DNA of 64,000 bases. Origin: Streptomyces sp. cg36. Lineage in GTDB: Bacteria; Actinomycetota; Actinomycetes; Streptomycetales; Streptomycetaceae. The DNA is taken from contig NZ_CP163520.1 in assembly GCF_041080675.1 (NCBI RefSeq), positions 7,965,501-8,029,500 of the forward strand, given 5' to 3'. Both the position numbers and the translations under genes were made by a program. Shown piece after piece: positions 34,395 through 61,223 of the stretch. The notes beneath the pieces were generated by a model. It had not been told where the DNA came from and ran no database searches. It was given only the letters and a program-made list of their open reading frames with translations. Each line of letters opens with the position of its first letter. The first letter of the stretch is position 1.

Positions 34395-34439
34395 ACCGTA
34401 CGAACCGGGGTGGCGGCGCAGGATCGGCCGATGGGCGGA
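34395..34439 (-). promoter_or_regulatory. Island-type promoter: box + N23 + TACGGT
   Basis: Box TCCGCCCATCGGCCGA (34424-34439) fits TC-N3-C-N4-G-N3-GA; 23 bp later is the -10 element TACGGT (34395-34400). No -35 element. Drives Usp2-Usp1. Confidence 0.65.
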
Positions 34440-34506
34440 ACAGCCGGGGGACACGCGCGGGACGAACGGTCGCCGGGTCCTGGCGGCCAGCCGCGGGCGG
34501 AACGCG

Positions 34507-34546
34507 AGCGGCGGCGTACGGCAGAGGGGTGCCGTACGCCGCCGCT
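34507..34546 (-). terminator. Perfect 17-bp hairpin terminator
   Basis: Stem 34507-34523 / 34530-34546 without mismatch, 6-base loop, 15 bp after the response regulator stop. Confidence 0.9.
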
Positions 34547-34560
34547 TGAGACGCTGCGGG

Positions 34561-35241
34561 CTATTCGAGCAGGCCGCGGCGCATGGCCTCGGCGACGGCC
34601 GCCGCCCGGTCGGAGACGCCGAGCTTCTCGTAGAGGCGTTGGGTGTGGGTTTTGACGGTGCTGGCGCCCAGGAACAGCTCGGCCGCCAGCTGGGGAATGC
34701 TCTGCCCCTTGGCGAAGCCCTTCAGTACTTGGCGTTCGCGCTCGGAGAGGATGACCGTGTCGCGGTCCGCGCGAATGCGGATCTCGTCCACCAGTCCGCC
34801 GGTGAGCTCTTCGGAGACGACCTGCTTGCCCGCGGCGACCCGCATCACCGCGTGCACGATCTCCGACCGTTTGGCGTCCTTGGCGAGGTACCCGGCGGCG
34901 CCCTCTTCGAGCGCGCGGAAGACCACGGCGCTGTCGGTGGTGGCCGACAGCAGGATGGTGCGGGTCGGCAGCTGGTCCCGGACGACCGCGTGGATGACGG
35001 CGATGCCGTCGAGCTTGGGGATGCGGTAGTCGAGCAGGGCGACATCGGGGTTCAGCTCGCGGATGGCCTCCAGCGCGGCCTCGCCGTCCTCCGCCTCGGC
35101 GACCACGTCGATCTGGCCGCTGAGCTGGAGTCCGCGGGCGATGCCCTCGCGGAAGACGGGGTGGTCGTCCGCGACCACCACGGAAACTCGGTTACCGGAG
35201 TCGGTCACCTCGACCTCGCTTTCTGGTGCGGCGGTGCGCAC
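34561..35241 (-). CDS. NarL/LuxR-family response regulator
   Basis: 226 residues. The receiver domain (about 18-135) has VVADDHP and the phospho-acceptor in VALLDYRIPKLDG, with the conserved Thr/Ser and Lys in LLSATTDS and YLAKDAKR. The LuxR-type helix-turn-helix (about 160-220) reads LSERERQVLKGFAKGQSIPQLAAELFLGASTVKTHTQRLYEKL. GTG 35241 is the longest start; GTG 35208 is an alternative. It follows Usp3 by 66 bp in one operon under an island-type promoter and has no adjacent kinase gene; two NarL-type kinases lie 19-23 kb to the right. The most likely regulator of the island (inference). Confidence 0.92.
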   Translation of the reverse strand: MRTAAPESEVEVTDSGNRVSVVVADDHPVFREGIARGLQLSGQIDVVAEAEDGEAALEAIRELNPDVALLDYRIPKLDGIAVIHAVVRDQLPTRTILLSATTDSAVVFRALEEGAAGYLAKDAKRSEIVHAVMRVAAGKQVVSEELTGGLVDEIRIRADRDTVILSERERQVLKGFAKGQSIPQLAAELFLGASTVKTHTQRLYEKLGVSDRAAAVAEAMRRGLLE

Positions 35242-35307
35242 CTCAACAGTGGCAGGCTTCGCGGGCGACCGCTTGTCGGGTGACCACGCGGGTGGGGGTG
35301 GGGGTGG

Positions 35308-35847
35308 TCAGGCGCGGTGGCTGGGCCGCGAGGGGATCCTCGGCGGGCAGGAGCCGGGAGACGGCGGGGCTGCGGGCGCCTCGGTGGACTCCTGCCCGGC
35401 TGTCTCGTGCGGTACGACCAGGACGGGGCAGGACGCGTACTTGAGGCAGTGCTTGCGCGTCGACCCGAAGAAGAACCGGTACAGCGCGCTGTGCCGACTC
35501 GTGCCGACGACGAGCAGGTCGCCGTCCCGGCGGGCGAGCCGGGACAAGGTGCGGCCCGGGTCGCTTCCCGTGATGACGGCCGGGTTCACGGGCGTCCCGT
35601 CATCGCTGAGCGTGACGGTGCAGTCGTGCTCCAGGTCGTGGCAGGCGTTGGAGTGCAGCGCCCGCTCCAGTTCGTCGTCGAGCGGCCAGAGGTCGCCCTG
35701 GGCGTCGCTCTCCAAGGCGCGGCGGACCCGTATCGGGCGGAGCTCGGCCCGGTGGCGGCGGGCCTCGCAGGCGGCCTGGCGCAGCGCCGCGAGGCTGCCC
35801 GGTGTCCCGTCGACTCCTACCACCACCCGGCGTACGGCCTGGCTCAT
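35308..35847 (-). CDS. Universal stress protein (Usp3)
   Basis: 179 residues. VVVGVDGTPGSLAALRQAACEARRH, then DLLVVGTSRHSALYRFFFGST, and the CLKYASC pair before PVLVV. It ends in a Pro/Ser-rich tail. ATG 35847 with GAGGAG seven bases upstream. Co-transcribed with the response regulator downstream, so the regulator and this Usp are expressed together. Confidence 0.92.
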   Translation of the reverse strand: MSQAVRRVVVGVDGTPGSLAALRQAACEARRHRAELRPIRVRRALESDAQGDLWPLDDELERALHSNACHDLEHDCTVTLSDDGTPVNPAVITGSDPGRTLSRLARRDGDLLVVGTSRHSALYRFFFGSTRKHCLKYASCPVLVVPHETAGQESTEAPAAPPSPGSCPPRIPSRPSHRA

Positions 35848-35951
35848 GTTCTTCTCCTCGTCGGTGTGCGTCGATGTGTGCGCGCCGATGGGTGTTGCGT
35901 ACTGCATGGGAAACCGGCGTCCAGCGGCGCACGGTGGACTCCGGTGTCTTC

Positions 35952-35996
35952 ACGCTAGGCGTGGGAGGGCGCCGGACGGATCGGGCGGGTGGCCGA
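35952..35996 (-). promoter_or_regulatory. Island-type promoter: box + N23 + TAGCGT
   Basis: Box TCGGCCACCCGCCCGA (35981-35996) and -10 TAGCGT (35952-35957), 23 bp apart. Drives Usp3 and the response regulator, consistent with autoregulation. Confidence 0.65.
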
Positions 35997-36048
35997 TCGG
36001 GCGGTGGAGGGGCTGTTCCCCCGAACGGGGCGGGGGCGGGGCCGTCGC

Positions 36049-38064
36049 TCAGAGCGTGGTGCCGGGGTCTTCGCGGCGCAGAGTGAGCAGGGCGGCGTCG
36101 TCCAGGTGTCCGGTCAGTTGGGCGGTCGCCAGGAGCGCTTCGGCGAGTTCGTCGGCGTCCGCCCGCGGGTTTTCCGCCGTGATGCGGCGGACCCGTTGCA
36201 GCCCGCTGTCGAGGGTGACCTGGGGGCCTTCCACCAGGCCGTCGCTGAACAGGGACAGCGTGCGGATGAGGGTGAGCGGGCGGCGGATCGTGCCGTAGCG
36301 GGAGCCCGGCAGGATGCCCAGCGGGGGGCCGGGAGGCGGGGCGAGCAGCACGCTGCTCCCGTCCATCAGGCCCAGCACGCCGGGGACGTGGCCGGCGGTG
36401 GCCGCGGTCAGCTCGTCGGCCCGGGGGTCGATGACCACATAGGTGCAGGTGGCGAAGTGGGAGCCGGTCAGGGCGCAGAACAGGTCGTTCGCCTTGGCCA
36501 GCACGTCGCCGGGGGTGGCTTCGGTCTGCGCGTAGGCGCGTACGGCGGTGCGTGCCTGGCCCATGGCGGCGGCGGCCCGGACGTCGTGGCCCTCCACGTC
36601 GCCGATGCACAGTCCGTAGCGGCCGTCGGGCAGCGGGAAGGCGTCGTACCAGTCGCCGCCCACGTCGATGCCGCCGCGGGCCGGGACGTAGCGGCCCGCC
36701 AGCCGTAGCCCGGGCAGGTCGGGCAGGGCGGCGGGCATCATCACCTGCTGGACGGCGTGGGCGAGGTCGACGCGGTCCTGTACCAGCGCGGAGCGCTCCA
36801 GGGCCTGGCCGGTGAGTCCGGCGACCGTCAGCAGCAGCGACCGTTCCTCGGGGGGAAACGTGTGGGTGCGGGCGTAGCCCAGGACCAGGGCGCCGGGCTC
36901 CCGACTGCCGCGGTCCAGCGGGAGGACCGCCCAGGAGCGGGCCTGGGTGCGGGAGAGCAGACCGTGGGGGTCCCCGTCGCTGAGTTCGCGGAACTCCTGG
37001 TGGGAGGCGATGAAGCAGGGTTGCCCGGTGCGGATGACATGGGCGGCGGGCACCGCGGAGTCGACGGGCAGCCCGTCCATGACCTCGCCGGCGGGCCCAC
37101 CGGCGCCGGAGGCGGCCAGTGGGCGCAGCACCCCGCTGTCGGGGACGACGACCAGCGCGCCGATCGCGTTGAGCTCTTGGTGGAAGCCGTCGGTGAGGGC
37201 GCAGGCGATGCCCTGGGTGGTGGTGGCCGAGACGAGGGAGGCGGCCACCTTCTCGATGCGCGTGGCGCGGTCGGCCTCGTTGCGCGCCCGGTCCTCCAGG
37301 GCGCCGCGCCGTGCCGTCTCGTCGGTGATGTCGCGGGTGATGCCGACCAGCCAGCGGCGCGGCGGATGGCTGAGCAGGTGGACGCGGGCGTCGATGCGCA
37401 TCCAGCGGAGTGCTCCGGAGTCGTCGTGCATGGCGTAGGTGGCTTCGAGGGTGTCGGCGCCGTTGACCGCCCGGGTGAAGGCGTCCCTCACCGCGTCGAG
37501 GTGTTCGGGGGCGGTGGCGGCCTCCAGCTGGGCGCCGATGGGTGCGGTGCCCAGCCTCAGACCGTAGAGCTCCTCGGAGCCGTCGAACCAGCGTTCGTCG
37601 CCCGTGACCAGGTCGATGCTCCAGACGGCGAGGGAGGCGGTGCGCAGGGCCAGGCGGAGTTGCGTGCGGCGTTCGGTGATCTCGTCGCCGACCTCGCTCA
37701 CCTGCGCCACGCAGTACTCCGCGGTGTCCGCTCGGCGCACGCTCAGGAGCACCGCGCGGTCAGGGTCGGGCGGGGTGGGCAGGTGCAGCACCTGTTCGGC
37801 GGAGGCGCCCACGGCGTGGAACGCCCGGTGGAGGGTGGTGCGGGCGGCCCGGTGGTGTTCCGCCGGGAGCCGGTCGGTCCAGCAGATGTCGCCCGCCTCG
37901 CGCGGCGCGGGGCCCAGCAGGCGGGCCCACTGGGGGTTGGTGAGCAGTTCACGGCCGTGCCGGTCGAGTACGGCCAGGCCGCCGGGCGCGCCCTCGAAGG
38001 CTTGGGCCGTGAGGTCGGCGGTGGTCCCGGGTGCCGGGTCGGCCGGGTCGGAGTGGCGGTGCAT
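36049..38064 (-). CDS. PAS/GAF/SpoIIE-type PP2C phosphatase
   Basis: 671 residues, soluble. Two PAS domains (about 20-130 and 135-260; the second ends in a WLVGITRDITDETARR PAC motif), a GAF domain (about 285-430) and the SpoIIE phosphatase (about 450-665; GGDWYDAFPLPDG, IGDVEGHDVRAAAAMG, LFSDGLVEG). It would dephosphorylate an anti-sigma antagonist in response to a signal bound by PAS/GAF. It lies 62 bp after the class F sortase gene and probably belongs to the Usp4-sortase-phosphatase operon. Confidence 0.9.
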   Translation of the reverse strand: MHRHSDPADPAPGTTADLTAQAFEGAPGGLAVLDRHGRELLTNPQWARLLGPAPREAGDICWTDRLPAEHHRAARTTLHRAFHAVGASAEQVLHLPTPPDPDRAVLLSVRRADTAEYCVAQVSEVGDEITERRTQLRLALRTASLAVWSIDLVTGDERWFDGSEELYGLRLGTAPIGAQLEAATAPEHLDAVRDAFTRAVNGADTLEATYAMHDDSGALRWMRIDARVHLLSHPPRRWLVGITRDITDETARRGALEDRARNEADRATRIEKVAASLVSATTTQGIACALTDGFHQELNAIGALVVVPDSGVLRPLAASGAGGPAGEVMDGLPVDSAVPAAHVIRTGQPCFIASHQEFRELSDGDPHGLLSRTQARSWAVLPLDRGSREPGALVLGYARTHTFPPEERSLLLTVAGLTGQALERSALVQDRVDLAHAVQQVMMPAALPDLPGLRLAGRYVPARGGIDVGGDWYDAFPLPDGRYGLCIGDVEGHDVRAAAAMGQARTAVRAYAQTEATPGDVLAKANDLFCALTGSHFATCTYVVIDPRADELTAATAGHVPGVLGLMDGSSVLLAPPPGPPLGILPGSRYGTIRRPLTLIRTLSLFSDGLVEGPQVTLDSGLQRVRRITAENPRADADELAEALLATAQLTGHLDDAALLTLRREDPGTTL

Positions 38065-38126
38065 GGCGGTCTTTCGGCGCGGGGACGGGGGAGCGCTGGG
38101 CGGGGCCGCCCTCCGGGCCGGGCGGT

Positions 38127-38780
38127 TCACCGTGAGCTGCTGAGCGTGGCGTAGACGACGATGTTGTCCAGGTACTGGTGGTGGGAGTCACGCGGTCCGG
38201 CGCAGGTGATCAGGCGGAGGTCGGCGGCCGAGCCCCCGCGGTAGACCTCCTGCGTGGGGAAGTCGCTCTTGGGGTATTCCCGGACCGTGCGCACGGTGAA
38301 ACGGGCCATGGTGTGGTCGGCGCGGCTCACGTCGATCTCCCGGCCGGGGGTGAGGGTGCCCAGTCGGAAGAAGACGCCCTTGCCGTAGGAGCCGACGGTG
38401 GAGTGGCCGACGATCACGGAGGCGCCGGGCTCGCCGGGCGTGGGAGAGCCGCGGTACCAGCCGACCGGGGCGCGCGCCTCGATGGGCGGCACCTGCACGG
38501 TGCCGTCCGGTGCCAGTCCGAGCGTGACGACCGGGGTGGACAGGTCCAGTGACGGGATGCGGAGCCGGACCGGCCGCGACGCGTGGAGGGGTGTGACTGC
38601 GGATGGCGCGGCGGAGGAGCGCGATGTGGTCGCGTTGGAGGACGGGCGGGGCGGGTCGAGGGCGGTGGTGCCCTTGCCTTCGCCGAGCATGATCAGTCCG
38701 ATGCCGATGAGCAGGACGGCGAAGCAGACCACCCCGAGGGCGGGCGCCCTGGACGGGGCCGCCGTGCGGCGGGCCATCAC
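38127..38780 (-). CDS. Class F sortase
   Basis: 217 residues. One N-terminal membrane helix (about 14-33), a linker, then a sortase barrel: APVGWYRGSPTPGEPGA, VGHSTVGSYGKGVFF (catalytic His) and DLRLITCAGPR (catalytic Cys in the TC pair). Class F sortases of actinobacteria have no assigned role in Streptomyces. GTG 38780 overlaps the Usp4 stop by four bases. Paralogue of the sortase at 59822. Possible substrates are the PRTG/PKGG-tailed proteins elsewhere in the window. Confidence 0.9.
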   Translation of the reverse strand: MMARRTAAPSRAPALGVVCFAVLLIGIGLIMLGEGKGTTALDPPRPSSNATTSRSSAAPSAVTPLHASRPVRLRIPSLDLSTPVVTLGLAPDGTVQVPPIEARAPVGWYRGSPTPGEPGASVIVGHSTVGSYGKGVFFRLGTLTPGREIDVSRADHTMARFTVRTVREYPKSDFPTQEVYRGGSAADLRLITCAGPRDSHHQYLDNIVVYATLSSSR

Positions 38781-39367
38781 ACGCGGTGGGGGCTGCGGAT
38801 GGCGACGGCGGACACGTCCTCAAGGAGGCGGAACAGGGAGCCGGTGCGCGGCTTGGGGAGGGGATCCTCCTGCCGCTGGCCGGAGTGGGTGGTGGCGTCG
38901 CTGGAGGCGGGTGTCTTCTCTGCGGCGGGGACTACGAGGACGGTGCGCTCGCTGTGGCTCAGGCAGTAGCGGCTGACCGAGCCGTGGACCAGCCGGTGCA
39001 TCAGGCTCGGCGTGCCGCCGCCCAGGACCAGGAGGTCGTCGGCGCGGTCGGCAGCCGCCACCAGGAGCGGGCCGGGTGCCCCCGGGGCCGCCAGCGGGTT
39101 GCAGCGGACCTCGGCGGGGAGGTCGGCCAGGACCTGTGCGCACGAACGGGTGAGGTCGGCGTAGGCCGCGGTCCGGTAGTCGTCGGCCTCGGACGGGGCG
39201 GGCGGCCAGACCATGTCCAGGTATTCGCCCTGCGGGGACGAGTAGGCGAGGACCGGACGGAGTTCGGCGTGGTGGCGCAGGGCTTCCTCGGCTGCCCGGC
39301 GCAGCGCGGTGAGGCTGTTGCGGGAACCGTCGACGCCGACGACGACGCGGTTGATGGTGGTGTTCAT
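38777..39367 (-). CDS. Universal stress protein (Usp4)
   Basis: 196 residues. VVVGVDGSRNSLTALRRAAEEALRH, then DLLVLGGGTPSLMHRLVHGS. The second cysteine of the paralogue pair is missing here (CLSHSERTVLVV). The tail is long and charged. ATG 39367 with AAGGAG nine bases upstream. Leads the operon with the sortase and probably the phosphatase. Confidence 0.92.
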   Translation of the reverse strand: MNTTINRVVVGVDGSRNSLTALRRAAEEALRHHAELRPVLAYSSPQGEYLDMVWPPAPSEADDYRTAAYADLTRSCAQVLADLPAEVRCNPLAAPGAPGPLLVAAADRADDLLVLGGGTPSLMHRLVHGSVSRYCLSHSERTVLVVPAAEKTPASSDATTHSGQRQEDPLPKPRTGSLFRLLEDVSAVAIRSPHRV

Positions 39368-39487
39368 GTGCGGCTCCTTGTTCCGTGGGGTGCGTGGGGC
39401 ACGAGGAGAACGGGGTGTGGGCGCTCCTCCGGCCGGGCCGGGTGCGGCAACCGGGGCTCTCGCGGTACGGAGCTGCCCGGTGATTCC

Positions 39488-39532
39488 ACGGTAGGAGGGC
39501 GCGGGCGGACGGTTCATCGCACGTTCGGTCCC
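39488..39532 (-). promoter_or_regulatory. Island-type promoter: box + N23 + TACCGT
   Basis: Box GGGACCGAACGTGCGA (39517-39532; first two positions differ from consensus) and TACCGT (39488-39493). A second candidate palindrome, TCCCCCGATCCAGGGA, lies just upstream and overlaps it. Drives the Usp4-sortase operon. Confidence 0.55.
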
Positions 39533-39664
39533 TGGATCGGGGGAGGTGGATGTCCTCCGGCCGGTGGGCGCTCGGGCTCCCCGGGGCAGGCGGAGAGCCC
39601 TGGCCGGGAGGGCTCGGCGGTGGCCGGTGCCGCCCGTGCGCAGGGCTCTGGTGTCGTGGTGGAT

Positions 39665-40249
39665 TCAGGTGTGGTGGATGCCGGCCAGGGTGTCGATCGG
39701 GCTCAGCGGTACCACCGAGGGGGTGGCCGGGGCGGGGGCGTGGGCGGACTCGCCGGGCAGCGGGGTCCGCGAGACTCCAGCCGCGGCGTTGCCGCTCGTG
39801 GGCTCCGAGTGGACCACCAGGACGGGGCAGCGGGAGTGCTTGAGGCAGTGGCGGCGGGCCGACCCGTGGGTGAGCCGGTGGAGCATGCCGTGGCCTCCGA
39901 CGCCGACCACGAGCATGTCGGTGTCCCGGCTGGAGCAGGCCACGAGCGTGGGACCGGCACCGGCGCGTACCACCCGGGAGGAGACGCGCACCTCGGCGTC
40001 GATGTCGCCGAGGGCGGTGTCGCAGGCGGCGCTGAGGCGCCGACGGGCGTCCTGCTCCCACTGGCGGTGCTGGTGCGGGGCCGCGGGGTGGACCGCGTAG
40101 CGGGCCTCGCCACCCGGCGGGGACCAGGCCATGACCGGGCAGAGTTCGGCGCCGTGCCGGGCGGCCTCGCGGGCCGCCTGCCTGAGCGCGGCGAGGCTGC
40201 CCTGCGAACCGTCGACGCCCACTATCACGCGCTGCACACGTGCCGACAT
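39665..40249 (-). CDS. Universal stress protein (Usp5)
   Basis: 194 residues. VIVGVDGSQGSLAALRQAAREAARH, DMLVVGVGGHGMLHRLTHGSARR (full ATP-binding glycine pattern) and the CLKHSRC pair before PVLVV. ATG 40249. The leader between promoter and start carries a strong hairpin. Monocistronic as far as can be seen; the next gene on this strand (Usp4) has its own promoter. Confidence 0.92.
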   Translation of the reverse strand: MSARVQRVIVGVDGSQGSLAALRQAAREAARHGAELCPVMAWSPPGGEARYAVHPAAPHQHRQWEQDARRRLSAACDTALGDIDAEVRVSSRVVRAGAGPTLVACSSRDTDMLVVGVGGHGMLHRLTHGSARRHCLKHSRCPVLVVHSEPTSGNAAAGVSRTPLPGESAHAPAPATPSVVPLSPIDTLAGIHHT

Positions 40250-40308
40250 ATCTGATCAACTCCTTGGAGGATGCGGGTGCTCCGCACGGGAGGCGTCCCA
40301 TGAGGAGG

Positions 40309-40346: not shown

Positions 40347-40353
40347 GACGCCA

Positions 40354-40398
40354 ACGCTAGGTCCGGGGACCCTCGGCGGGTGTCGGGCGATCGGGGGA
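40354..40398 (-). promoter_or_regulatory. Island-type promoter: box + N23 + TAGCGT
   Basis: Box TCCCCCGATCGCCCGA (40383-40398) and -10 TAGCGT (40354-40359). It lies inside the 3' end of the lipoprotein gene; the -10 includes that gene's stop codon. Confidence 0.65.
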
Positions 40399-40791
40399 CC
40401 GGCCGGGGGACGGGCACGCGCCCAGGCAGTGCGTCTTGAGGTACACGCGCCCGCCGACGGTCACGGTGAAGTCACCGTTGGTGACGCCCTTGCCGTGGGC
40501 GTCGTTGGCCGTCTTGGTGACGGTGCCGAACAGCCGGACCTTCTGGTTGTCGACCGTCTCGGACGTGCACTCGATGGACATCAGGCCGTCGCGTCCGGAA
40601 CCGGGAGTGGACTTGCACTCCAGGTCGTCCTTGAGCTTGAGGCCCGCGTTGTGGAGGGTGGTGTCGCCGACGCCGGGGCCGGCCAGGTTCATGGCCAGGC
40701 CGTTCATCCTGCTGTCGGGGGTGGAGCAGGCGGCGGCGCAGGCGATGGCACCGACGGCGACGGTGGTGGCGACGATCAGACGGATACGCAT
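40357..40791 (-). CDS. Putative lipoprotein, DUF4333-like
   Basis: 144 residues. A signal sequence with a lipobox-like AIACAAAC end (lipidated Cys near residue 19 or 22), then a small domain with cysteines in DLECKSTPG, SIECTSETV and KTHCLGACPSPG. The layout resembles DUF4333 lipoproteins of actinobacteria; function unknown. ATG 40791 with AAGGA eight bases upstream. Lies 79 bp after the DsbB-like gene, so its paired cysteines could be DsbB-dependent substrates (inference). Confidence 0.7.
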   Translation of the reverse strand: MRIRLIVATTVAVGAIACAAACSTPDSRMNGLAMNLAGPGVGDTTLHNAGLKLKDDLECKSTPGSGRDGLMSIECTSETVDNQKVRLFGTVTKTANDAHGKGVTNGDFTVTVGGRVYLKTHCLGACPSPGRSPDRPTPAEGPRT

Positions 40792-41646: not shown

Positions 41647-42051
41647 GACGTCTCCGATGCGGGTGGAAAACGAAAGGAGGGCCTGTAGGGAAAGGCTCCT
41701 GCCTTGTCGCACCAGACTGCCCTGATCCGGCGACATGGCCCCATCCCGGCATCGGTGGACCGGTCGGTGGAGAGGGCGGGAACCGATTGGTGGATGTCGC
41801 GTCGATCAATTCGAGGAAAAAGAGCAGGGTGTCTTTCTATTCCTCTGCATGCTGGATACTCTGAAATGAGTGAAAGATTCTACGGTGCGCTTTCGCGGAA
41901 ATTCGGACTACCTTGAAGGTTTTCTCCAGGTGCCGCTCCGAAAGAATTCCGGCCCGGGGCGTGCCGTTCGGCGCCGTGTGCGGGCCCGTACGGACACAGG
42001 GGGCGGGACCCGTCGCCCCGTCGCCCGCTGACCCACCCACAGGACGTACTC
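41647..42051. other. Divergent intergenic region (DsbB operon / DUF1275 gene)
   Basis: 405 bp without a convincing gene. Around 41800-41900 it is unusually AT-rich for this genome and contains TACGGT at 41880-41885 facing right. A partial match to the island palindrome (41744-41759; core G replaced by C) faces the DsbB operon but has no TANNGT at the right spacing. Confidence 0.5.
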
Positions 42052-42888: not shown

Positions 42889-42904
42889 CCCTCCGATCGG
42901 GGGA
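42889..42904 (+). promoter_or_regulatory. Island-type palindrome upstream of hemerythrin
   Basis: CCCTCCGATCGGGGGA fits the box at all but the first position and is the core of an 18-bp near-palindrome (42887-42904). A TACGGG follows after 17 bp rather than 23, so the promoter alignment is uncertain. Confidence 0.45.
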
Positions 42905-43050
42905 TCGGGCGCGAACCGTTGTACGGGCCGGTCGGCCGTGTCGCGCCCGTACCGCCTCATGACACGTTTGACCTGCGGCTTTCTCATACCGCCACGGACT
43001 CTCGGTTCCGTGTACGCCGCGCTGTCACGCGCCCCGAAAGTGGAGAGACC

Positions 43051-43518
43051 ATGACGCAGCACTGCACCGACCTCACGATGGAGCTGGCCGACGACCATCG
43101 CGCCATCCTGGCGATCTTCGACCGCATCCACAGCACGCCCCTGGAGGACCCGGCCCGCGAGCGGCTCCTGCGGCACGCGGCGGGCGAGCTGGAGCGCCAC
43201 GCGATCGCCGAGCGGCGGTTCCTGCTGCCCGTTCTGCGTCGTCGGCTGACGGAGGGCGAGGACATGGCCCGTGCCGAGGCCGAGGAGCACGAGCGACTGA
43301 CGGGGATGGTCAACGCCCTGGGCTCCGCTTCTGTGGCGCGCCCTGGGTTCGACGCTCAATTGCGGGCGTTGGAGCTGGAGGTCAAGCGGCACATCCGGCA
43401 TGACGAGCACAGCCTGTTCCCCCTGCTGCGGCAGGCATGCCCGCACGAGGACCTGCACATGCTCGGCTCGGCCTTCCGGGAGCACGCCACCCGCCACCAC
43501 GCGGACGTAGCTGCGTGA
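43051..43518 (+). CDS. Hemerythrin-like protein
   Basis: 155 residues. Histidines in ADDHRAI, LERHAIAERR, EEHERL, HIRHDEH and EHATRHH suit the four-helix bundle with a di-iron centre that binds oxygen or nitric oxide. Cytosolic. ATG 43051 with GGAGAG five bases upstream. Its place among Usp genes suggests a role in oxygen or NO handling under stress. A terminator follows. Confidence 0.87.
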   Translation: MTQHCTDLTMELADDHRAILAIFDRIHSTPLEDPARERLLRHAAGELERHAIAERRFLLPVLRRRLTEGEDMARAEAEEHERLTGMVNALGSASVARPGFDAQLRALELEVKRHIRHDEHSLFPLLRQACPHEDLHMLGSAFREHATRHHADVAA

Positions 43519-44814: not shown

Positions 44815-44859
44815 TCCCCCGATCGGATGGGCCCCTGGCCGCACCCCGCGAGTGAGGGT
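44815..44859 (+). promoter_or_regulatory. Weak island-type promoter: box + N23 + GAGGGT
   Basis: Box TCCCCCGATCGGATGG (44815-44830; last base differs) and GAGGGT (44854-44859) at the same 23-bp spacing. The -10 is poor. Upstream of the SpoIIE/kinase fusion. Confidence 0.4.
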
Positions 44860-51072: not shown

Positions 51073-51127
51073 GGCTCGTCTCCTTGTGCCGGGGGAAAAG
51101 GGAGGGGCCGGTGAGGGCCCCTTTCCC

Positions 51128-51172
51128 ACGGTAGGGAGGGAGCCGTGGCCGGGGTGTCCCACGAAGGGGGGA
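51128..51172 (-). promoter_or_regulatory. Island-type promoter: box + N23 + TACCGT
   Basis: Box TCCCCCCTTCGTGGGA (51157-51172) and -10 TACCGT (51128-51133), upstream of Usp6. Confidence 0.65.
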
Positions 51173-51220
51173 GACGGTGGGGGCGGACATGTCCACCACT
51201 GGGCCGCGTGCGCCGCTCGC

Positions 51221-52916: not shown

Positions 52917-52960
52917 GGCGTGCCTGCTCTCTGAGCCCGTGCTGGGGTGGTCCACGGGCC

Positions 52961-53723: not shown

Positions 53724-53768
53724 ACGCTACGGAGGGATGCGGGGGCGTTGGATCCGTCATACGGTCGA
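53724..53768 (-). promoter_or_regulatory. Island-type promoter: box + N23 + TAGCGT
   Basis: Box TCGACCGTATGACGGA (53753-53768) and -10 TAGCGT (53724-53729). It lies between the divergent phosphatase and kinase genes, so it may affect both. Confidence 0.65.
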
Positions 53769-53833
53769 GCGGGCGGGGGAGGCAGATATCCGCCGCCCGG
53801 CTGTGGACGGCGGACGTGTCCGGGCGGTGTGCG

Positions 53834-55033
53834 ATGACGACTCGGTGGCGTGAAGAGCAGCTGGCGTCCATGACGGAGCTGACGAGCCGCTACGTCGCCT
53901 GGCTGCGGCTGCCCGCCCTCGTGCCCGTGCTGCTCGCCGCGCTGGCGGCCGAGCGGTATCTGAACGCGGGCGGTTTCTTCACCGTGTTCGGCCTGTACGC
54001 GGTGTGGTCGGTGGCGCGCCTGGTGCAGGTGCACCGGCAGCCGTCGGCCGGACCCGGCGGAGCGGTCCTGGCGGCCACGGTGGACGTGCTGGCCATCACC
54101 GCGATGGGCGCCCTGTCCGGGGGGCCGCACTCCTTCGTACGCTACGCGTACTACGTACTGCCGATGGCCAGCACCATGTGGCAGCGGCCCCGGCTCACCG
54201 CCTGGCTGAGTGCCGCCTGTATGGGCGGATACCTGGTGATGACGCTGCCGCACCTGCTGACGCACCACGACGCCGACGGGCTGCCGATCGCGGTGGACCT
54301 GGTGTACCTGCTGTGGGACGTCGGGGTGTGCGTGCTGGTGGCGGTGTTGCTGCGACGGCGCAGCAACCAGCTCGCGGAGCTCCTGGACAACCGGGAGTCG
54401 CTGCTGCGCAACGCCCTGGACGCGGAGGAACGCGAGCGGGCCCAGCTCGCCGACGCGCTGCACGACAGCGCGGTGCAGAACCTGCTGGCCGCGCTGCACG
54501 ACTTGGAGGAGGCCGCGGACGCGGCGCCGTCGGAAGCGTTGGAGCGGGCGTCGCACGAAGTGCGCGGATCGGTCAAGGAGATCCGGGACGTCATCTACGT
54601 CCTGCATCCGCAGGTCCTTGCCGCGGCCGGGATCGCACCCGCGCTGGAGTCCATCGGCGGCCGACTGGCACGGCGCGGGGGGTTCACGGTCCACTACGAC
54701 CTGCGCCTGGCGGAGCGGGGGCCGTTCGAGTCGCTGCTGTTCTCGGCGGCCCGCGAACTGCTCAACAACGTCGTCAAGCATGCCGGGGCGAAGAACGTGT
54801 GGGTGAGCCTGCGGCGGGACGGCGACGACGTGGTGCTGGCCGTGCGGGACGACGGCAAGGGGTTTGACCGCAGCGTCATCCAGGAGCGGTTGCGGGCCGG
54901 CCACATCGGGCTGGCCAGCCACTACGTACGGGTGGAGAGCGCGGGCGGGCGGTTCACGGTGGACAGCGCGCCCGGTGGCCCCACCGACGTGGAGGTCCGC
55001 CTGCCGGTGCGGACGCCCGCCGCGAAGGTCTGA
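53834..55033 (+). CDS. NarL-type sensor histidine kinase (kinase A)
   Basis: 399 residues. Four or five membrane helices (about 25-175), then HisKA_3 dimerisation (about 205-270) with the phospho-acceptor His in ADALHDSAVQNLLA, then HATPase (about 300-395; N box ELLNNVVKHA, DDGKGFD, GHIGLASH). No sensor domain beyond the membrane part. ATG 53834; a second in-frame ATG lies at 53870. Paralogue of the kinase at 56580. No adjacent response regulator; the NarL-type regulator at 34561 is the obvious candidate partner. Confidence 0.9.
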   Translation: MTTRWREEQLASMTELTSRYVAWLRLPALVPVLLAALAAERYLNAGGFFTVFGLYAVWSVARLVQVHRQPSAGPGGAVLAATVDVLAITAMGALSGGPHSFVRYAYYVLPMASTMWQRPRLTAWLSAACMGGYLVMTLPHLLTHHDADGLPIAVDLVYLLWDVGVCVLVAVLLRRRSNQLAELLDNRESLLRNALDAEERERAQLADALHDSAVQNLLAALHDLEEAADAAPSEALERASHEVRGSVKEIRDVIYVLHPQVLAAAGIAPALESIGGRLARRGGFTVHYDLRLAERGPFESLLFSAARELLNNVVKHAGAKNVWVSLRRDGDDVVLAVRDDGKGFDRSVIQERLRAGHIGLASHYVRVESAGGRFTVDSAPGGPTDVEVRLPVRTPAAKV

Positions 55034-55083
55034 GGGGAACCGCCTGGGCGGGCCGATCGGCGGAGCCGCGCTCACCAGGCCAA

Positions 55084-56586: not shown

Positions 56587-57905
56587 GAGCGGGCTCGCCG
56601 CACGGGCGCACGGGCGGCGACGGCGGACAGGAGCCGGGCGCCCGGCGGGCGTTGGGCGGCTGGTCCCGGTGCGGCGGTGACTGGATGTGCCGCGCGGACC
56701 AGGCGGACCCGCAGCTGGAGCGGTGTGCGGCCGGGATGCGCTTGGCGCTCCTGGCGCCCCTCGTCCTGACGGGGCTGACCGTCATCGACAGCGGGGCACG
56801 CGGCGCGTACTGGGTGCTGCTGGCCGCGTTCGCCGTGTGGAGCGTGCTGCAGGCGTGGCACCTGCGGTGGCGTGCCGCCACGCGGCTGAACCAGGCGGTG
56901 GCGGTCCTGCTGACCGACCTGGCGGTGCTGGCGCTGCTGGCTGAGCTGAGCGGCGGGCCCTACTCGCCCGTGTGCTTCGTGTACTTCCTGGTCCCCCTGA
57001 CCACGGTGCTGTGGCAACTGCCGCGCGTCTCGGTGGTGGTGGGGATGCTGTGCATCGGGGTGTACGCGGTGCTGGCCCTGGTGAACCTGTCGCCGCCGCG
57101 GCGCTCCCCCGACCTCGGCATGGACCTGCTGATCCAAGGGGTCTACCTGATGTGGCTCAGCGGGGTCGCCACCACGCTCTGTGTGCTGCTGAGCAGGCGC
57201 TCGCGGCGGGTGGCGCAGCTGCTGAGCGCGAGCCAGACCCTGCTGGAGGACGCGCTCGCGGCGGAGGAGCGCGAACGGGCCGAACTGGCCGACCAGTTGC
57301 ACGACGGTGCCGTGCAGAGCCTCCTCGCGGCCTGCCAGGATCTGGAGGAGGTCGCCGAGGAAGGCACCTCCCCGGCGCTGGAACGGGCCACGGCCTGCGT
57401 GCGCCAGACCGTGGCGGAGCTGCGGGAGACCGTCCTGGACCTGCATCCGCAGGTGCTCGCCGCGGTCGGACTCGCCGAGGCCCTGCGCCAGGCGGGCGGG
57501 CGCGCCGCACAGCGCGGCGGCCTCGACGTGCGGTACGCGATGCAACCGCGCGGACACGTGCCGGGAGAGCCGTTGATCTACGCGGCGGTGCGCGAGGCAC
57601 TGGCCAACGTCGTACGCCACGCGGAGGCGACCCGGGTACGCATCGAGCTGCGCGGCGAGGACCGGCACACGGTAGCGTGCGTGGTGGACGACGGCGTCGG
57701 CTTCGCCCCGGCACTGCTGACGGCCCGCATCGCCGAGGGGCACATCGGGCTGGCCAGCCACCGGGTGCGCATCGAGAGCGCGGGCGGCACCTTCCGGGTC
57801 GAGAGCACTCCGGGGTGCGGCACCCGCGTCGAGATCCGGTTGCCGAGCGAAGGCGTGCGGTTGCGGCCCCGGGCACCGGGGGCCACGGCGGCGGCAGCGC
57901 GGTGA
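56580..57905 (+). CDS. NarL-type sensor histidine kinase (kinase B)
   Basis: 441 residues. A variable N-terminus, four or five membrane helices (about 52-205), HisKA_3 (about 225-290) with the phospho-acceptor in ADQLHDGAVQSLLAACQDLEE, and HATPase (about 320-425; AVREALANVVRHA, DDGVGFA, GHIGLASHRV). Clear paralogue of kinase A with the same domain order. ATG 56580 lies inside the MFS stop region. No adjacent response regulator. Confidence 0.9.
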   Translation: MLRAGSPHGRTGGDGGQEPGARRALGGWSRCGGDWMCRADQADPQLERCAAGMRLALLAPLVLTGLTVIDSGARGAYWVLLAAFAVWSVLQAWHLRWRAATRLNQAVAVLLTDLAVLALLAELSGGPYSPVCFVYFLVPLTTVLWQLPRVSVVVGMLCIGVYAVLALVNLSPPRRSPDLGMDLLIQGVYLMWLSGVATTLCVLLSRRSRRVAQLLSASQTLLEDALAAEERERAELADQLHDGAVQSLLAACQDLEEVAEEGTSPALERATACVRQTVAELRETVLDLHPQVLAAVGLAEALRQAGGRAAQRGGLDVRYAMQPRGHVPGEPLIYAAVREALANVVRHAEATRVRIELRGEDRHTVACVVDDGVGFAPALLTARIAEGHIGLASHRVRIESAGGTFRVESTPGCGTRVEIRLPSEGVRLRPRAPGATAAAAR

Positions 57906-58012
57906 GCCGGGAGCCCGGGCGGGGTGAGCGGGGCTCGGACGTGCGCTCGCGGCGGGGTGACGCCGTCCACGGGCGAAGAAGCCGATCGGCGCCGGGTGCG
58001 TCCCCTGCCGGG

Positions 58013-58057
58013 CCCCCCACTCGTGGGATCCGGCGGCGCTGCCGCGCTGCCTAGAGT
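58013..58057 (+). promoter_or_regulatory. Island-type promoter: box + N23 + TAGAGT
   Basis: Box CCCCCCACTCGTGGGA (58013-58028) and -10 TAGAGT (58052-58057). Upstream of the leader peptide and second MFS gene. Confidence 0.6.
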
Positions 58058-58135
58058 CGACAGCGGTGCCAGGGGCACGGCGCTCTGGCGGCGGGCCGGG
58101 TAAACCCCCCGCGTCGGGCCGCAGCCCGCACCGTG

Positions 58136-58179
58136 GCGGCCGTACAGGCCGATGCCGTCGCATCGGCCTGTACGGCCGC
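58136..58179 (+). terminator. Perfect 20-bp hairpin in the MFS leader
   Basis: Stem 58136-58155 / 58160-58179 with no mismatch and a 4-base loop. It lies 231 bp after the kinase B stop, but also about 70 bp downstream of the predicted start of the MFS transcript, so it may terminate kinase B, attenuate the MFS gene, or both. Confidence 0.7.
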
Positions 58180-58267
58180 GCCCCGCCCCCCTGTCCGGTG
58201 TGCGGGTGAACAGATCCGCCCGTGCGCCGGCCCCGCCGCGCGCGGACAGTGAAAGTGAGCGCAACCC

Positions 58268-58336
58268 ATGAGGATCCCCGAGATCACACCTGCCCGCCGC
58301 CCCACGCCCGCCAACACCCATGCGCGGGTGCGGTGA
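58268..58336 (+). CDS. Possible 22-residue leader peptide of the MFS gene
   Basis: ATG 58268 encodes MRIPEITPARRPTPANTHAR plus two residues and ends in a TGA that overlaps the MFS ATG by one base (TGATG). A weak GTGAG lies about nine bases upstream. The MFS gene itself has no good ribosome-binding site, which fits translational coupling to this peptide. Pro- and Arg-rich composition is of the sort that can stall ribosomes. Not proven. Confidence 0.45.
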   Translation: MRIPEITPARRPTPANTHARVR

Positions 58337-59796
58337 TGACGGGCCTCGGCTCGGCGCGTGCGCGTCTGCTGGTCCTGGTGTGCTGCCTGGCGGTGCTCAT
58401 GGTCGGCCTCGACAGCACGGCGCTCAACGTCGCACTGCCCGCCATGCAGAGGCAGTTGCACACCTCCGTCTCCGGCATGCAGTGGGTGGTCGACGCCTAC
58501 AACCTCGTGGTGGCCGCGTTGATCCTGCTCACCGGGTCGACCGGGGACCGCGTCGGTCGGCGCCGGGTCTTCATGGCCGGTGCTGCCCTGTTCGCCGTCG
58601 GATCCACGCTGTGCGCGCTGGCGTCGAGCCTGGAGTGCCTGGTGGGGTTCCGGGTGATCCAGGCGCTAGGCGGAGTGATGATCGCCCCCGCCTCCCTCTC
58701 CCTGATCACCCATGCCTTCCCGGACCAGGCCGTGCGCAGCCGGGCGATCGGTATCTGGAGCGCCGCGTTCGGCACCGGCCTCGCCCTCGGTCCGATCATC
58801 GGCGGCGCACTGGTGGCCAGTGCGGGGTGGCGTTCGATCTTCTGGATCAACGTGCCGGTCGCGGCGCTGGCCGTGGTGCTCTCCCACCGTTTCGTCGCCG
58901 AGTCGCGCGCGGCGCGGGCCCGGCGCGCCGACCCGGTGGCACAGCTGCTGGTCATCGTCCTGCTGGGCAGTGTGAGCTACGGGGTCATCGAGGCCCCGCG
59001 CAACGGCTGGACCTCGGGCCTGATCGTGGGCTGTCTCGCGGTCGCCGTCGCGGCGCTGGCCGCGCTCGTCGTATGGGAGCGCCGCAGGGACGAGCCGCTG
59101 GTGGAGACGCGGTTCTTCCGCAGCGTCCCGTTCAGCGGATCCGTGGTGGTCTCGCTGGCGTCGTTCGCCGCGCTCGGCGGATTCCTGTTCGTGAACACGC
59201 TCTACTTGCAGGACGTGCGGGGCATGAGCGCCCTGGCGGCGGGGCTGTGGATGCTGCCGATGGCGGCGATGACGGTGGTGTGCGCGCCGCTGGCGGGCCG
59301 GCTCGCGGGCCGGTCCGGGCCGCGGGTCCCCGTGGTCCTGTCCGGCGCCGCGATGGCTCTGAGCGGTCTGCTGCTCGCTGTCTGCCACGCCGAGTCGTCG
59401 GGGGTGGCGCTGTGCGTGGCGTACGCGCTGTTCGGTGCCTCGATCGGTCTGGTCGACGTGCCCGCTACGGCGCTGGCGGTGGCGGGCATGCCGAGGGAGC
59501 AGGCGGGCACCGCCTCCGCCATCACGATGTCGAGTTGCCGCATCGGTGTGGCGCTGGGTGTCGCGGTGTTCGGCTCGGTCCTGGCCGAAGGGCTGCACCG
59601 CACGACCGGTCACGCGGCGCGGCCGATGGCGGGCTTCCTGGCCGCGGCGCAGCCGATCTGGTGGCTCGTGGTGGGCTGCGGTCTTGTCGTCGGCCTGCTG
59701 GGCGTGCTCGTCAGCGGGGCCTGGGCCACCTCGACGGCCCGCGAGGCCGTGACCGGGCTGAGCCGGACCCCGGCCCTGGAAAACGCCGAGTCGTGA
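58336..59796 (+). CDS. 14-helix MFS drug exporter (EmrB/QacA type)
   Basis: 486 residues with about fourteen membrane helices. Motif C-like GTGLALGPIIGGAL (about residues 145-158), the loop TGSTGDRVGRRRVF (motif A) and the opening LDSTALNVALPAMQRQLHTSV are typical of drug:H+ antiporters. ATG 58336 is preferred; the upstream in-frame extension is hydrophilic. Expression probably depends on the box promoter at 58013, the hairpin and the leader peptide. Confidence 0.9.
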   Translation: MTGLGSARARLLVLVCCLAVLMVGLDSTALNVALPAMQRQLHTSVSGMQWVVDAYNLVVAALILLTGSTGDRVGRRRVFMAGAALFAVGSTLCALASSLECLVGFRVIQALGGVMIAPASLSLITHAFPDQAVRSRAIGIWSAAFGTGLALGPIIGGALVASAGWRSIFWINVPVAALAVVLSHRFVAESRAARARRADPVAQLLVIVLLGSVSYGVIEAPRNGWTSGLIVGCLAVAVAALAALVVWERRRDEPLVETRFFRSVPFSGSVVVSLASFAALGGFLFVNTLYLQDVRGMSALAAGLWMLPMAAMTVVCAPLAGRLAGRSGPRVPVVLSGAAMALSGLLLAVCHAESSGVALCVAYALFGASIGLVDVPATALAVAGMPREQAGTASAITMSSCRIGVALGVAVFGSVLAEGLHRTTGHAARPMAGFLAAAQPIWWLVVGCGLVVGLLGVLVSGAWATSTAREAVTGLSRTPALENAES

Positions 59797-59821
59797 CCGC
59801 CGGACGAGCGGGGCGCGGGGG

Positions 59822-60469
59822 TCAGCCGGAGGAGGTCATGTCGGCGTAGGCCACGATGTTGTCGCTGTATCCGTCCGCGCCACGGGTGCCCCCGCAGGTG
59901 ACCAGCCGCAGCTGCGGCCCGCCCGACCCGCCGTACACCTCGTCGGCCGGGAAGCGGGACTTGGGATACTGACGCACCTCGCCCACGGTGAAGTGGACGG
60001 TGGAGCCGTCGGCGCGCGCCACGTCGACGCGGTCGCCGGGCCGCAGCCGCCCCACGTCGAAGAACGCGCCCTTGCCGTACACACCGACCGTGGAGTGCCC
60101 CAGCAGTACGGAGGCGCCGTCCTGCCCCGGCGTCGGTGAACCGCGGTACCAGCCGACGGGGGCGTCGCGTTCGATCGGAGGCACCTGCACCGTGCCGTCG
60201 CCCTCCAGACCGAGGGGGACCACCGGTGCCGAAAGGCCGAAGCGGGGGATGTCCACGCGGACCGGCTCGGAGCGGCCGAGCGGGGCGACGGAGCGGTTCG
60301 GGTGCACGGGGGCCGTGGTGGTGGGTGCGGTGGGCCGGGGCGGTGTGTCGGCGTCGGAGGGCCCGAACCAGAGGAATCCGATGAGCACCAGCGCGAGACC
60401 GGCGAGGAGTATGACGACGTACACCGGTCCCGGGGTGCGTCGAGTGGGGGTCTTGCGGTCGGAACGCAT
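59822..60469 (-). CDS. Class F sortase
   Basis: 215 residues. One N-terminal membrane helix (about 15-36), then the sortase barrel with LGHSTVGVYGKGAFF (His) and QLRLVTCGGTR (Cys). Closely related to the sortase at 38127 (shared APVGWYRGSPTPG, YPKS-x-FP and D-x-Y-x-DNIV segments). ATG 60469. Convergent with the MFS gene 25 bp away. No sortable substrate gene is directly adjacent. Confidence 0.9.
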   Translation of the reverse strand: MRSDRKTPTRRTPGPVYVVILLAGLALVLIGFLWFGPSDADTPPRPTAPTTTAPVHPNRSVAPLGRSEPVRVDIPRFGLSAPVVPLGLEGDGTVQVPPIERDAPVGWYRGSPTPGQDGASVLLGHSTVGVYGKGAFFDVGRLRPGDRVDVARADGSTVHFTVGEVRQYPKSRFPADEVYGGSGGPQLRLVTCGGTRGADGYSDNIVAYADMTSSG

Positions 60470-60660
60470 CGTCAGGGCCTCTCTGCCGTAGGTCGCGGTG
60501 GTGGACGGCGTTCGCGCAGGACAGCCGGTCGCCGGGGCATTGCTCCACGGCCACCGGGGTGGGAACACGCGGCAATTGGCGCACGCGGTGGGGGAGTTGG
60601 CGGACCGCCAGCGGCCATGGCGGCGGGTGCGACGCGGCCGTCACCCGTGCTGACGCACGC

Positions 60661-60984
60661 TCAGCAGGAGCGGCGCAGCAGGGCACGCCGTTCGGTCGCG
60701 CTCATCCCGCCCCACACTCCGGTGGTCTCCTTGTTCCGCAGGGCCCAGGACAGGCACTCGGGCTGGACGGGGCAGGTGAAGCAGATCGCTTTGGCCCGCT
60801 CGACCTCGGCCGGGCTGGGCCCGTGGCGGCGGGGTGAGAAGAACACTTCCGGGGCCATGTCCCGGCAGGCCGCCGAGTGCCGCCAGTCCTCGCGGTCGCG
60901 GGGTGCGGGGCCGGTCCGCCGCTGGTGGCGTCGCAGGTACTGGAGGACGGCCGGGGCGAGTTGGGTGGTGGTCGCGCGATGCAC
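60661..60984 (-). CDS. WhiB-like iron-sulfur regulator
   Basis: 107 residues. Cysteines in SAACRDM and in ICFTCPVQPEC give the C-x29-C-x2-C-x5-C cluster pattern, followed by TGVWGGMSATERRALLRR with a basic DNA-binding tail. GTG 60984 with AGGAG six bases upstream. Divergent from the MmgE/PrpD gene; both starts have island-type boxes, which suggests the WhiB protein is itself part of the regulon. Confidence 0.92.
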   Translation of the reverse strand: MHRATTTQLAPAVLQYLRRHQRRTGPAPRDREDWRHSAACRDMAPEVFFSPRRHGPSPAEVERAKAICFTCPVQPECLSWALRNKETTGVWGGMSATERRALLRRSC

Positions 60985-61066
60985 AGGCGTCTCCTGTTCC
61001 GGTGAGGATACGGGCGCCGCGCGTATCCCTTCGGCCCTCGCGGACGCGGACGCGCGGTAGGCCGAC

Positions 61067-61111
61067 ACGGTAGGCAGGTGCCCCGGCGCCACGGTTCATC
61101 CCGGTGGGGGA
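61067..61111 (-). promoter_or_regulatory. Island-type promoter: box + N23 + TACCGT
   Basis: Box TCCCCCACCGGGATGA (61096-61111) and -10 TACCGT (61067-61072), driving the WhiB gene. Confidence 0.6.
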
Positions 61112-61178
61112 GACGGCAGGGGAAGTGGTGTTCCTCTGCCGGACGCCGCCGCCGTTGTCGCGGCCGTCCACCGGCCGC

Positions 61179-61223
61179 CCCTCTCATCGGGGGACACTCC
61201 CGGCCCGCCGGGTCTCCTACGGT
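61179..61223 (+). promoter_or_regulatory. Island-type promoter: box + N23 + TACGGT
   Basis: Box CCCTCTCATCGGGGGA (61179-61194; two positions off) and -10 TACGGT (61218-61223), facing the MmgE/PrpD gene. Confidence 0.55.

What the first reader, a model, noticed from the sequence alone, without database searches (positions are those of the whole stretch)
34395..61223. A shared palindrome-plus-spacing promoter defines a stress regulon across the island
Nine transcription units carry a 16-bp element of form TC-N3-C-N4-G-N3-GA placed exactly 23 bp before a TANNGT -10 element and without a -35 element. Sites (plus coordinates): 34424-34439, 35981-35996, 39517-39532, 40383-40398, 51157-51172, 53753-53768, 58013-58028, 61096-61111, 61179-61194. 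The central G and final GA are present in all nine; the paired C residues in eight of nine. Weaker copies at the same spacing lie before the SpoIIE/kinase fusion (44815) and the MFS-kinase pair (55084), and a box at another spacing before hemerythrin (42889). The targets include five Usp-led units, the response regulator, a sortase, a WhiB gene, MFS and MmgE/PrpD genes. The C-N4-G core resembles NarL/DevR-type boxes, and the NarL-type regulator at 34561 lies in a site-bearing operon. The site position fits a class II activator.
Basis: partly seen in the sequence, partly recalled or inferred. Interest (0 to 1): 0.9.

Follow-up and report, generated by a model that had tools for sequence, protein, structure and literature searches.

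The report
NarL-type stress regulon with composite operator
A cluster of stress-protein genes in a Streptomyces shares one unusual switch sequence, and comparison with other actinobacteria points to the little-understood regulator that probably works that switch.

Summary
All nine boxes lie where stated, exactly 23 bp before TANNGT; six fit the full pattern, where Markov-shuffled sequence gives 0.01. A whole-genome profile scan finds one more strong site and one weak one, both before Usp genes.

The local regulator belongs with mycobacterial NarL. Loci of its orthologues in Gordonia, Mycobacterium, Pseudonocardia and Cellulomonas carry the palindrome TCCNCCGATCGGNGGA. In Gordonia 29 of 33 genomes with the regulator have it, against 2 of 26 without, and 13 of 13 Gordonia promoters examined repeat the geometry: palindrome, half-site, box, N23, NANNGT. 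Two sister kinases in the island are probable partners. The association is weaker within Streptomyces. Binding, transcription starts and signal are untested.

The parts
34395..34451 (-). promoter: half-site (-12), box 34424-34439, N23, -10 TACGGT 34395-34400; before Usp 33753-34454
   Evidence: leave-one-out 28.2 bits
35952..36032 (-). promoter: distal palindrome 36017-36032 (36 bp upstream), half-site, box 35981-35996, -10 TAGCGT 35952-35957; before Usp 35308-35907, followed by the response regulator gene
   Evidence: rank 1 of 127,840 positions on the Gordonia-trained promoter matrix
39488..39568 (-). promoter: distal palindrome 39553-39568, half-site, box 39517-39532, -10 TACCGT 39488-39493; before the Usp-sortase-SpoIIE unit (38777-39517, 38127-38780, 36049-38130)
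   Evidence: rank 5
40354..40410 (-). promoter: half-site, box 40383-40398, -10 TAGCGT 40354-40359; before Usp 39665-40249
   Evidence: rank 31
51128..51184 (-). promoter: half-site, box 51157-51172, -10 TACCGT 51128-51133; before the Usp gene inside ORF 50563-51960
   Evidence: rank 2253
53724..53780 (-). promoter: half-site, box 53753-53768, -10 TAGCGT 53724-53729; before the phosphatase-Usp-esterase unit; kinase HK1 starts 66 bp from the box on the other side
   Evidence: rank 3
58001..58057 (+). promoter: half-site, box 58013-58028, -10 TAGAGT 58052-58057; before MFS 58222-59796
   Evidence: rank 788
61067..61123 (-). promoter: half-site, box 61096-61111, -10 TACCGT 61067-61072; before WhiB 60661-61092 and sortase 59822-60568
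   Evidence: rank 1513
61167..61223 (+). promoter: half-site, box 61179-61194, -10 TACGGT 61218-61223; before MmgE/PrpD (ORF 61104-62828, true start probably downstream of the promoter)
   Evidence: rank 27
34561..35241 (-). NarL/FixJ-family response regulator, candidate activator; orthologous group of mycobacterial NarL
   Evidence: PF00072 + PF00196; best PDB relative 3eul, 78 of 138 identical; near-invariant DNA-binding helix in orthologues
53834..55033 (+). HK1, histidine kinase (HisKA_3 + HATPase_c, N-terminal half hydrophobic by eye), candidate partner kinase
56685..57905 (+). HK2, sister kinase of HK1 (43% identical), candidate partner kinase
42889..42904 (+). strong palindrome before hemerythrin 42919-43518 (start probably further in); possibly the distal member of a pair with 42924-42939
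   Evidence: rank 1 of 63,985 16-mers on the non-Streptomyces palindrome matrix; 42924; pairing is inference
44815..44830 (+). single box before the SpoIIE-kinase gene 44963-47359; GAGGGT at N23
   Evidence: rank 6
   Evidence: 41743 (-) is rank 2 on the Gordonia-trained matrix

Best explanation
The island is the local regulon of a NarL-family two-component system in the orthologous group of mycobacterial NarL. The phosphorylated response regulator (34561-35241) binds the palindrome TCCNCCGATCGGNGGA (degenerate in this island) that ends 23 bp before a TANNGT -10 element, with help from a TCCNCC half-site 12 bp upstream and at some promoters a second palindrome 36 bp upstream, and recruits RNA polymerase at promoters without a good -35 (class II activation). 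It would switch on Usp, WhiB, sortase, SpoIIE-phosphatase, MFS and MmgE/PrpD units and its own operon. The input kinases are probably HK1 and HK2. Shown by sequence: sites, geometry, restriction to the island, and association of palindrome and regulator across genera. Inferred: binding, activation, kinase pairing, the weak -35 and a redox, hypoxia or NO-like signal.
For: Fixed geometry far above chance. Whole-genome profile scan: nine training sites E<=4.2e-7, next 9.4e-4 before a Usp gene. In the 80 loci fetched by regulator homology, exact TCCNCCGATCGGNGGA sites: Gordonia 14 (in 10 of 14 loci), Mycobacterium 4 (16 loci), Pseudonocardiales 2 (14), close Streptomyces 2 (11), further Streptomyces 1 (6), other actinobacteria 1 (9); Markov-1 expectation 0.0 each; none in 10 loci of distant regulators, none in 14 own control stretches, 280 kb. 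Genome-wide, 15 of 30 exact TCCVCCGATCGGBGGA sites in 16 relatives' genomes lie inside the regulator's locus (binomial p 2e-29 taking the loci as 0.35% of the DNA). Gordonia: 29 of 33 genomes with the regulator have the exact palindrome, 2 of 26 without (Fisher p 2.5e-10); 24 of 57 sites lie within 5 kb of the regulator gene. Thirteen of 13 separate Gordonia promoters repeat the geometry (12, one); a matrix from the twelve ranks the window sites 1, 3, 5, 27, 31, 543, 788, 1513 and 2253 of 127,840. Outside Gordonia, 3 of 10 exact sites checked (Cellulomonas L022, Pseudonocardia L084, Mycobacterium L063) have NANNGT at the same place on one strand, with a poorer second box. In 11 close Streptomyces loci 17 promoters score over 20 bits; 11 precede Usp relatives (12 counting L013, whose downstream gene shows in L152), one a hemerythrin, one an MFS gene. 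The DNA-binding helix is nearly invariant.
Against: No binding or transcription data. The window boxes are degenerate: no exact TCCVCCGATCGGBGGA lies in the window, and the genome's two exact copies (559466, 8284137) are elsewhere. Four of nine sites rank 543 to 2253 on the Gordonia matrix. In Streptomyces the association is weaker: with model R2, at a cut of E<=1e-4 chosen after seeing the list, 8 of 12 regulator-bearing genomes have hits against 1 of 14 without; at E<=0.01 it is 11 of 12 against 7 of 14; of the six bearing genomes not used in training only 2 pass 1e-4. With R1 at E<=0.01, 80 of 199 genomes had hits, and G031, which lacks the regulator, reached 30.9 bits. Target genes differ between genera. 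Four of 33 Gordonia genomes with the regulator lack the exact palindrome, and 7 of 10 exact sites outside Gordonia lack NANNGT at the expected place.
Confidence: 0.82

Rival explanations
1. The boxes are OsdR/DevR boxes and the island is part of the known OsdR dormancy regulon, activated by one of the two DevR/OsdR orthologues elsewhere in the genome.
For: Same 16-bp C-N4-G shape as the OsdR consensus AGGGCCGATCGGCCCT; the S. coelicolor OsdR regulon is also a Usp-rich island (PMC5069765); orthologues of 61% and 59% exist here.
Against: Window boxes score -26.6 to +3.7 on the OsdR matrix, published sites 11.4 to 18.7. Of the own-genome stretches around the two OsdR orthologues (L095-L097), L095 and L096 hold OsdR-type boxes up to 16.9 and L097 only one of 9.7; none of the three has a window-type promoter over 11 bits, and none of seven OsdR-type boxes inspected has NANNGT at N23. 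The palindrome tracks the other regulator across Gordonia.
Confidence: 0.07
2. Another regulator, for example one of the many further NarL-family proteins of this genome, reads the box; the local regulator is a bystander or a co-regulator.
For: 82 matches to the regulator in the genome, itself included; Streptomyces genomes without it carry partial matches (box end + N23 + TAGCGT or TACCGT) lacking the half-site, so the spacing may be general.
Against: The association with this orthologous group holds in several genera, with a near-invariant DNA-binding helix; the best full-length paralogue is only 42% identical.
Confidence: 0.09
3. Chance or GC-rich composition; no regulon.
For: The pattern has few fixed positions and the DNA is 71.5% G+C; weak profile hits are common in other genomes.
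Against: Six exact matches against 0.01 expected; leave-one-out scores 12.4-34.1 bits, while 20 other own stretches (400 kb) give only two hits over 11, both before Usp genes; recovery by matrices from other genera.
Confidence: 0.01

Closest known systems
OsdRK regulon of Streptomyces coelicolor / DevRS-DosT of M. tuberculosis (PMC5069765; abstract, passages, and sections 7 and 16 read)
   Same: Two-component control of a Usp-rich island by a NarL/FixJ-family regulator; 16-bp palindrome with C-N4-G core; sites clustered around the regulator gene.
   Different: Different orthologous group of regulator (32% to DevR), different palindrome (TCCNCCGATCGGNGGA against AGGGCCGATCGGCCCT), a middle half-site at -12 and a fixed N23 to NANNGT; Pfam finds no GAF domain in the candidate kinases.
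NarL (Rv0844c) with its kinase Rv0845 in M. tuberculosis
   Same: Same orthologous group by sequence: best PDB hit 3eul; seven mycobacterial regulators compared are 74-87% identical to 3eul and 59-63% to the window protein; a kinase of the HK1/HK2 family lies near the regulator in both mycobacterial loci shown. The locus number of 3eul is recalled.
   Different: [quoted passage not shown] tuberculosis are unknown (PMC5855569, passage); a 2017 review assigns it nitrate metabolism (PMC5309233, passage). In six of 16 mycobacterial loci here the palindrome (exact or one mismatch) lies just before the regulator gene, and no window-like Usp island was seen in the loci shown.
MacRS / MadRS / MctRS families (NCBIfam)
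   Same: The kinase ORF resembles MctS and MacS, the regulator NarL, MctR and MadR.
   Different: All scores lie far below the curated cut-offs.

Membership tests
NarL/FixJ response regulators | receiver domain plus GerE/LuxR-type HTH | tested here: met
   PF00072 1.3e-24 and PF00196 5e-15
Orthologous group of mycobacterial NarL | closer to this protein than to other NarL-family members | tested here: met
   3eul is the best PDB hit (151 bits over the receiver only) against DevR 94 bits; own full-length paralogues at most 42%, loci of other genera treated as orthologues 55-73%. No tree was built.
Orthologous group of mycobacterial NarL | conserved DNA-binding helix | tested here: met
   STVKTH(T/V)QRLYEKLGV nearly invariant over the orthologues printed; own OsdR orthologue L090 reads SEKTVKNHISRLLAKLGV
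Orthologous group of mycobacterial NarL | kinase encoded near the regulator | tested here: inconclusive
   17 of 23 loci shown have a kinase of the HK2 family within the fetched flank; here the two kinases lie about 19 and 21 kb away in the same island
OsdR/DevR regulon | regulator orthologous to DevR/OsdR | tested here: not met
   65 of 201 identical to DevR; two better orthologues in the genome
OsdR/DevR regulon | boxes fit the OsdR matrix | tested here: not met
   -26.6 to +3.7 against 11.4 to 18.7 for published sites
OsdR/DevR regulon | kinase with GAF sensor domains (recalled feature of OsdK/DevS) | tested here: not met
   Pfam at E 0.1 shows only HisKA_3 and HATPase domains in HK1 and HK2
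Class II activator promoter | activator box at a fixed short distance from the -10 | tested here: met
   N23 in nine of nine and N23 to NANNGT in 13 of 13 Gordonia promoters
Class II activator promoter | activation by contact with RNA polymerase | not testable with these tools
   needs transcription start mapping and in vitro transcription

The most novel reading that the evidence does not exclude
An undescribed actinobacterial regulon type: the NarL-group response regulator reads TCCNCCGATCGGNGGA in a fixed composite operator (distal palindrome -36, half-site -12, proximal palindrome 0, N23, NANNGT). The operator and the DNA-binding helix have stayed the same from Gordonia to Streptomyces while the target genes changed from small secreted proteins to a Usp-WhiB-hemerythrin stress island, so that two independent, similar-looking Usp regulons (OsdR and this one) run in one genome.
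Probability: 0.65. Interest if true: 0.72.

Novelty: new variant of a known kind. Interest (0 to 1): 0.62.

Why it matters
It gives a concrete DNA target and promoter layout for a widespread actinobacterial regulator whose targets in M. tuberculosis were called unknown in a 2018 review (PMC5855569, passage), and shows that a Usp stress island need not belong to the OsdR/DevR dormancy regulon it resembles. The claim is testable with one purified protein and one 80-bp probe.

Tried and rejected
Filing the boxes as OsdR sites was my first guess after reading PMC5069765; the OsdR matrix rejected it. Model R1 over 199 same-genus genomes was too noisy at E<=0.01 to show co-occurrence (80 of 199 hit); R2 on 26 chosen genomes was cleaner but only partly independent, and two of its 14 controls (G031, G054) were picked because R1 had hit them. 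The Gordonia-trained matrix gave nothing over 5 bits in 400 kb of own stretches, but the best window score is only 4.2, so that is no control. The own genome's two exact palindromes (559466, 8284137) were looked at and not tied to the regulon. Partial matches in genomes without the regulator (L145, L148, L149, L150) have box end, N23 and TAGCGT or TACCGT but no half-site. In loci of non-Streptomyces regulators the full window matrix gives no enrichment (54 hits over 8 bits in 1.05 Mb, best 16.1) and in the six further Streptomyces loci two hits over 20 bits, both in L076. Literature: the string TCCACCGATCGGTGGA is in 0 of 5.39 million papers; searches with NarL, NarS, Rv0844c and Rv0845 listed no paper whose title or shown abstract start describes this site; of the papers listed only three were opened (PMC5069765, PMC5309233, PMC5855569), and most subscription papers are not held. 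No structure was predicted and no tree built.
Full report
What was checked. Six of nine fit the full pattern; 200 order-2 Markov versions of the window average 0.01 matches, and the 40 other spacings between 5 and 45 bp give two matches in all. Leave-one-out scores are 12.4-34.1 bits; in 20 other stretches of the same genome (400 kb, 12 of them picked for Usp or regulator genes or for lying next to the window) only two positions exceed 11 bits, both just before Usp genes at 7.898 and 8.033 Mb.

Genome scan. A sequence-only profile of the nine sites searched over the 9.02-Mb genome returns the nine (E<=4.2e-7, by construction), then 7898410-7898473 (E 9.4e-4, before a Usp gene), then a tail from E 0.065 that includes 8032825 (E 0.12, before a Usp gene). 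Only 150 of 10,359 first-look candidates were scored, so weak sites may be missed. The genus is Streptomyces by inference: a same-genus genome (G060) is the one behind locus L013, titled Streptomyces klenkii.

Not OsdR. The nearest published case is OsdR of S. coelicolor, with consensus AGGGCCGATCGGCCCT and a Usp-rich target island (PMC5069765). A matrix from 25 sites of its Table 1 scores its own sites 11.4-18.7 and the window boxes -26.6 to +3.7. The genome has two DevR/OsdR orthologues, 61% at 4144392 and 59% at 7817390, against 32% for the local regulator. The stretches at 7.80-7.83 Mb hold OsdR-type boxes (up to 16.9) and no window-type promoter over 11 bits; seven OsdR-type boxes inspected there lack NANNGT at N23 on either strand.

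The regulator. The local response regulator's best relative of known structure is the mycobacterial NarL receiver 3eul (78 of 138 identical). A scan of one genome per species kept the 80 best loci (268 relatives found), from Streptomyces, Pseudonocardia, Gordonia, Mycobacterium, Cellulomonas and others. The DNA-binding helix is nearly invariant among orthologues and differs from OsdR's. Only 7 of 199 same-genus genomes, this one included, have a match at E<=1e-60 (14 candidates scored per genome).

The operator in other genera. Scanning all 80 loci for TCCNCCGATCGGNGGA gave exact sites in Gordonia (14 sites in 10 of 14 loci), Mycobacterium (4; 16 loci), Pseudonocardiales (2; 14), close Streptomyces (2; 11), further Streptomyces (1; 6) and other actinobacteria (1; 9), with a Markov-1 expectation of 0.0 each; loci of distant regulators (10) and own controls (14 stretches, 280 kb) gave none exact, the controls one with a single mismatch. 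Over whole genomes, 19 relatives and the own genome were searched for TCCVCCGATCGGBGGA: 16 relatives have 30 exact sites, 15 of them inside the regulator's fetched locus; three close Streptomyces have none; the own genome has two, neither in the window; the reversed control pattern gave none. The best control is within one genus: in 59 Gordonia genomes, 29 of 33 with the regulator and 2 of 26 without have the exact palindrome; the reversed control pattern occurs in one genome (p 2.5e-10).

The geometry in other genera. Twelve Gordonia promoters show distal palindrome, half-site 24 bp on, second box 36 bp on, N23 and NANNGT. The thirteenth separate exact site (L050 4288), first left out, shows the same on its other strand. 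A matrix from the twelve ranks the window sites 1, 3, 5, 27, 31, 543, 788, 1513 and 2253 of 127,840; a palindrome matrix from non-Streptomyces loci ranks them 4, 8, 11, 12, 22, 42, 134, 452 and 761 of 63,985. Of 10 exact sites outside Gordonia, three (Cellulomonas L022, Pseudonocardia L084, Mycobacterium L063) have NANNGT at the same distance on one strand, with a second box of 4-6 mismatches; seven do not.

Targets elsewhere. In 11 close Streptomyces loci (223 kb), 17 of 49 hits over 8 bits exceed 20 bits; own controls peak at 11.9. Of the 17, 15 have TANNNT at N23 (the matrix includes the -10, so this is partly by construction); 11 precede Usp relatives, one a hemerythrin, one an MFS gene, four no relative of a window protein, of which L013 does precede a Usp relative in the longer stretch L152. 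In Gordonia the downstream genes are mostly ~154-aa proteins with a signal-like start; the one tested has no Pfam family above cut-off. So the operator seems older than its present stress targets.

Kinases. A kinase that lies near the regulator in S. albireticuli (L009) has only two matches at E<=1e-20 in the own genome, both in this island: HK1 (53834-55033, 60%) and HK2 (56685-57905, 51%). They are 43% identical, have HisKA_3 and HATPase domains and by eye a hydrophobic N-terminal half. HK1 starts 66 bp beyond the box at 53753. Pairing is inferred from neighbourhood.

Results that weigh against. Streptomyces co-occurrence is incomplete: with R2 at E<=1e-4 (a cut chosen after seeing the list) 8 of 12 genomes with the regulator and 1 of 14 without have hits; at E<=0.01, 11 of 12 and 7 of 14; of six bearing genomes outside the training set, two pass 1e-4. 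R1 at E<=0.01 hits 80 of 199 genomes. The window boxes are degenerate forms, and binding, transcription starts and signal are untested.

Verdict. A real, well-conserved composite promoter, most likely read by the local NarL-group regulator. Its kind (two-component stress regulon, class II promoter) is known; the operator, the regulator group and its independence from OsdR appear not to be described in what I could search.

Noticed in passing
window 41718-41817 (-): Cluster of TCCACC half-sites and boxes before a small ORF and a DsbB-like gene in relatively AT-rich DNA; second-best position of the window on the Gordonia-trained matrix.
   Followed up: partly
window 27524-27563: Two good palindromes 24 bp apart between an acetoacetate-decarboxylase-like gene (26344-27348 -) and a glyoxalase-like gene (27637 +); no NANNGT at N23 was seen by eye.
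   Followed up: partly
window 53834-55033 and 56685-57905: Two sister histidine kinases in one island with one probable partner regulator.
   Followed up: partly
L033, L034, L041, L045, L048, L075 (Gordonia): Secreted-looking proteins, mostly ~154 aa, of unknown function downstream of the palindrome promoters, in two copies in L048 and L075.
   Followed up: no
L145, L148, L149, L150: Streptomyces genomes without the regulator have promoters with a box end, N23 and TAGCGT or TACCGT but no half-site; the 23-bp geometry may be general for NarL-family activators.
   Followed up: partly
own genome 559466 and 8284137: The only two exact TCCVCCGATCGGBGGA palindromes of the genome lie outside the island; 559466 is near another NarL-family regulator gene.
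   Followed up: no
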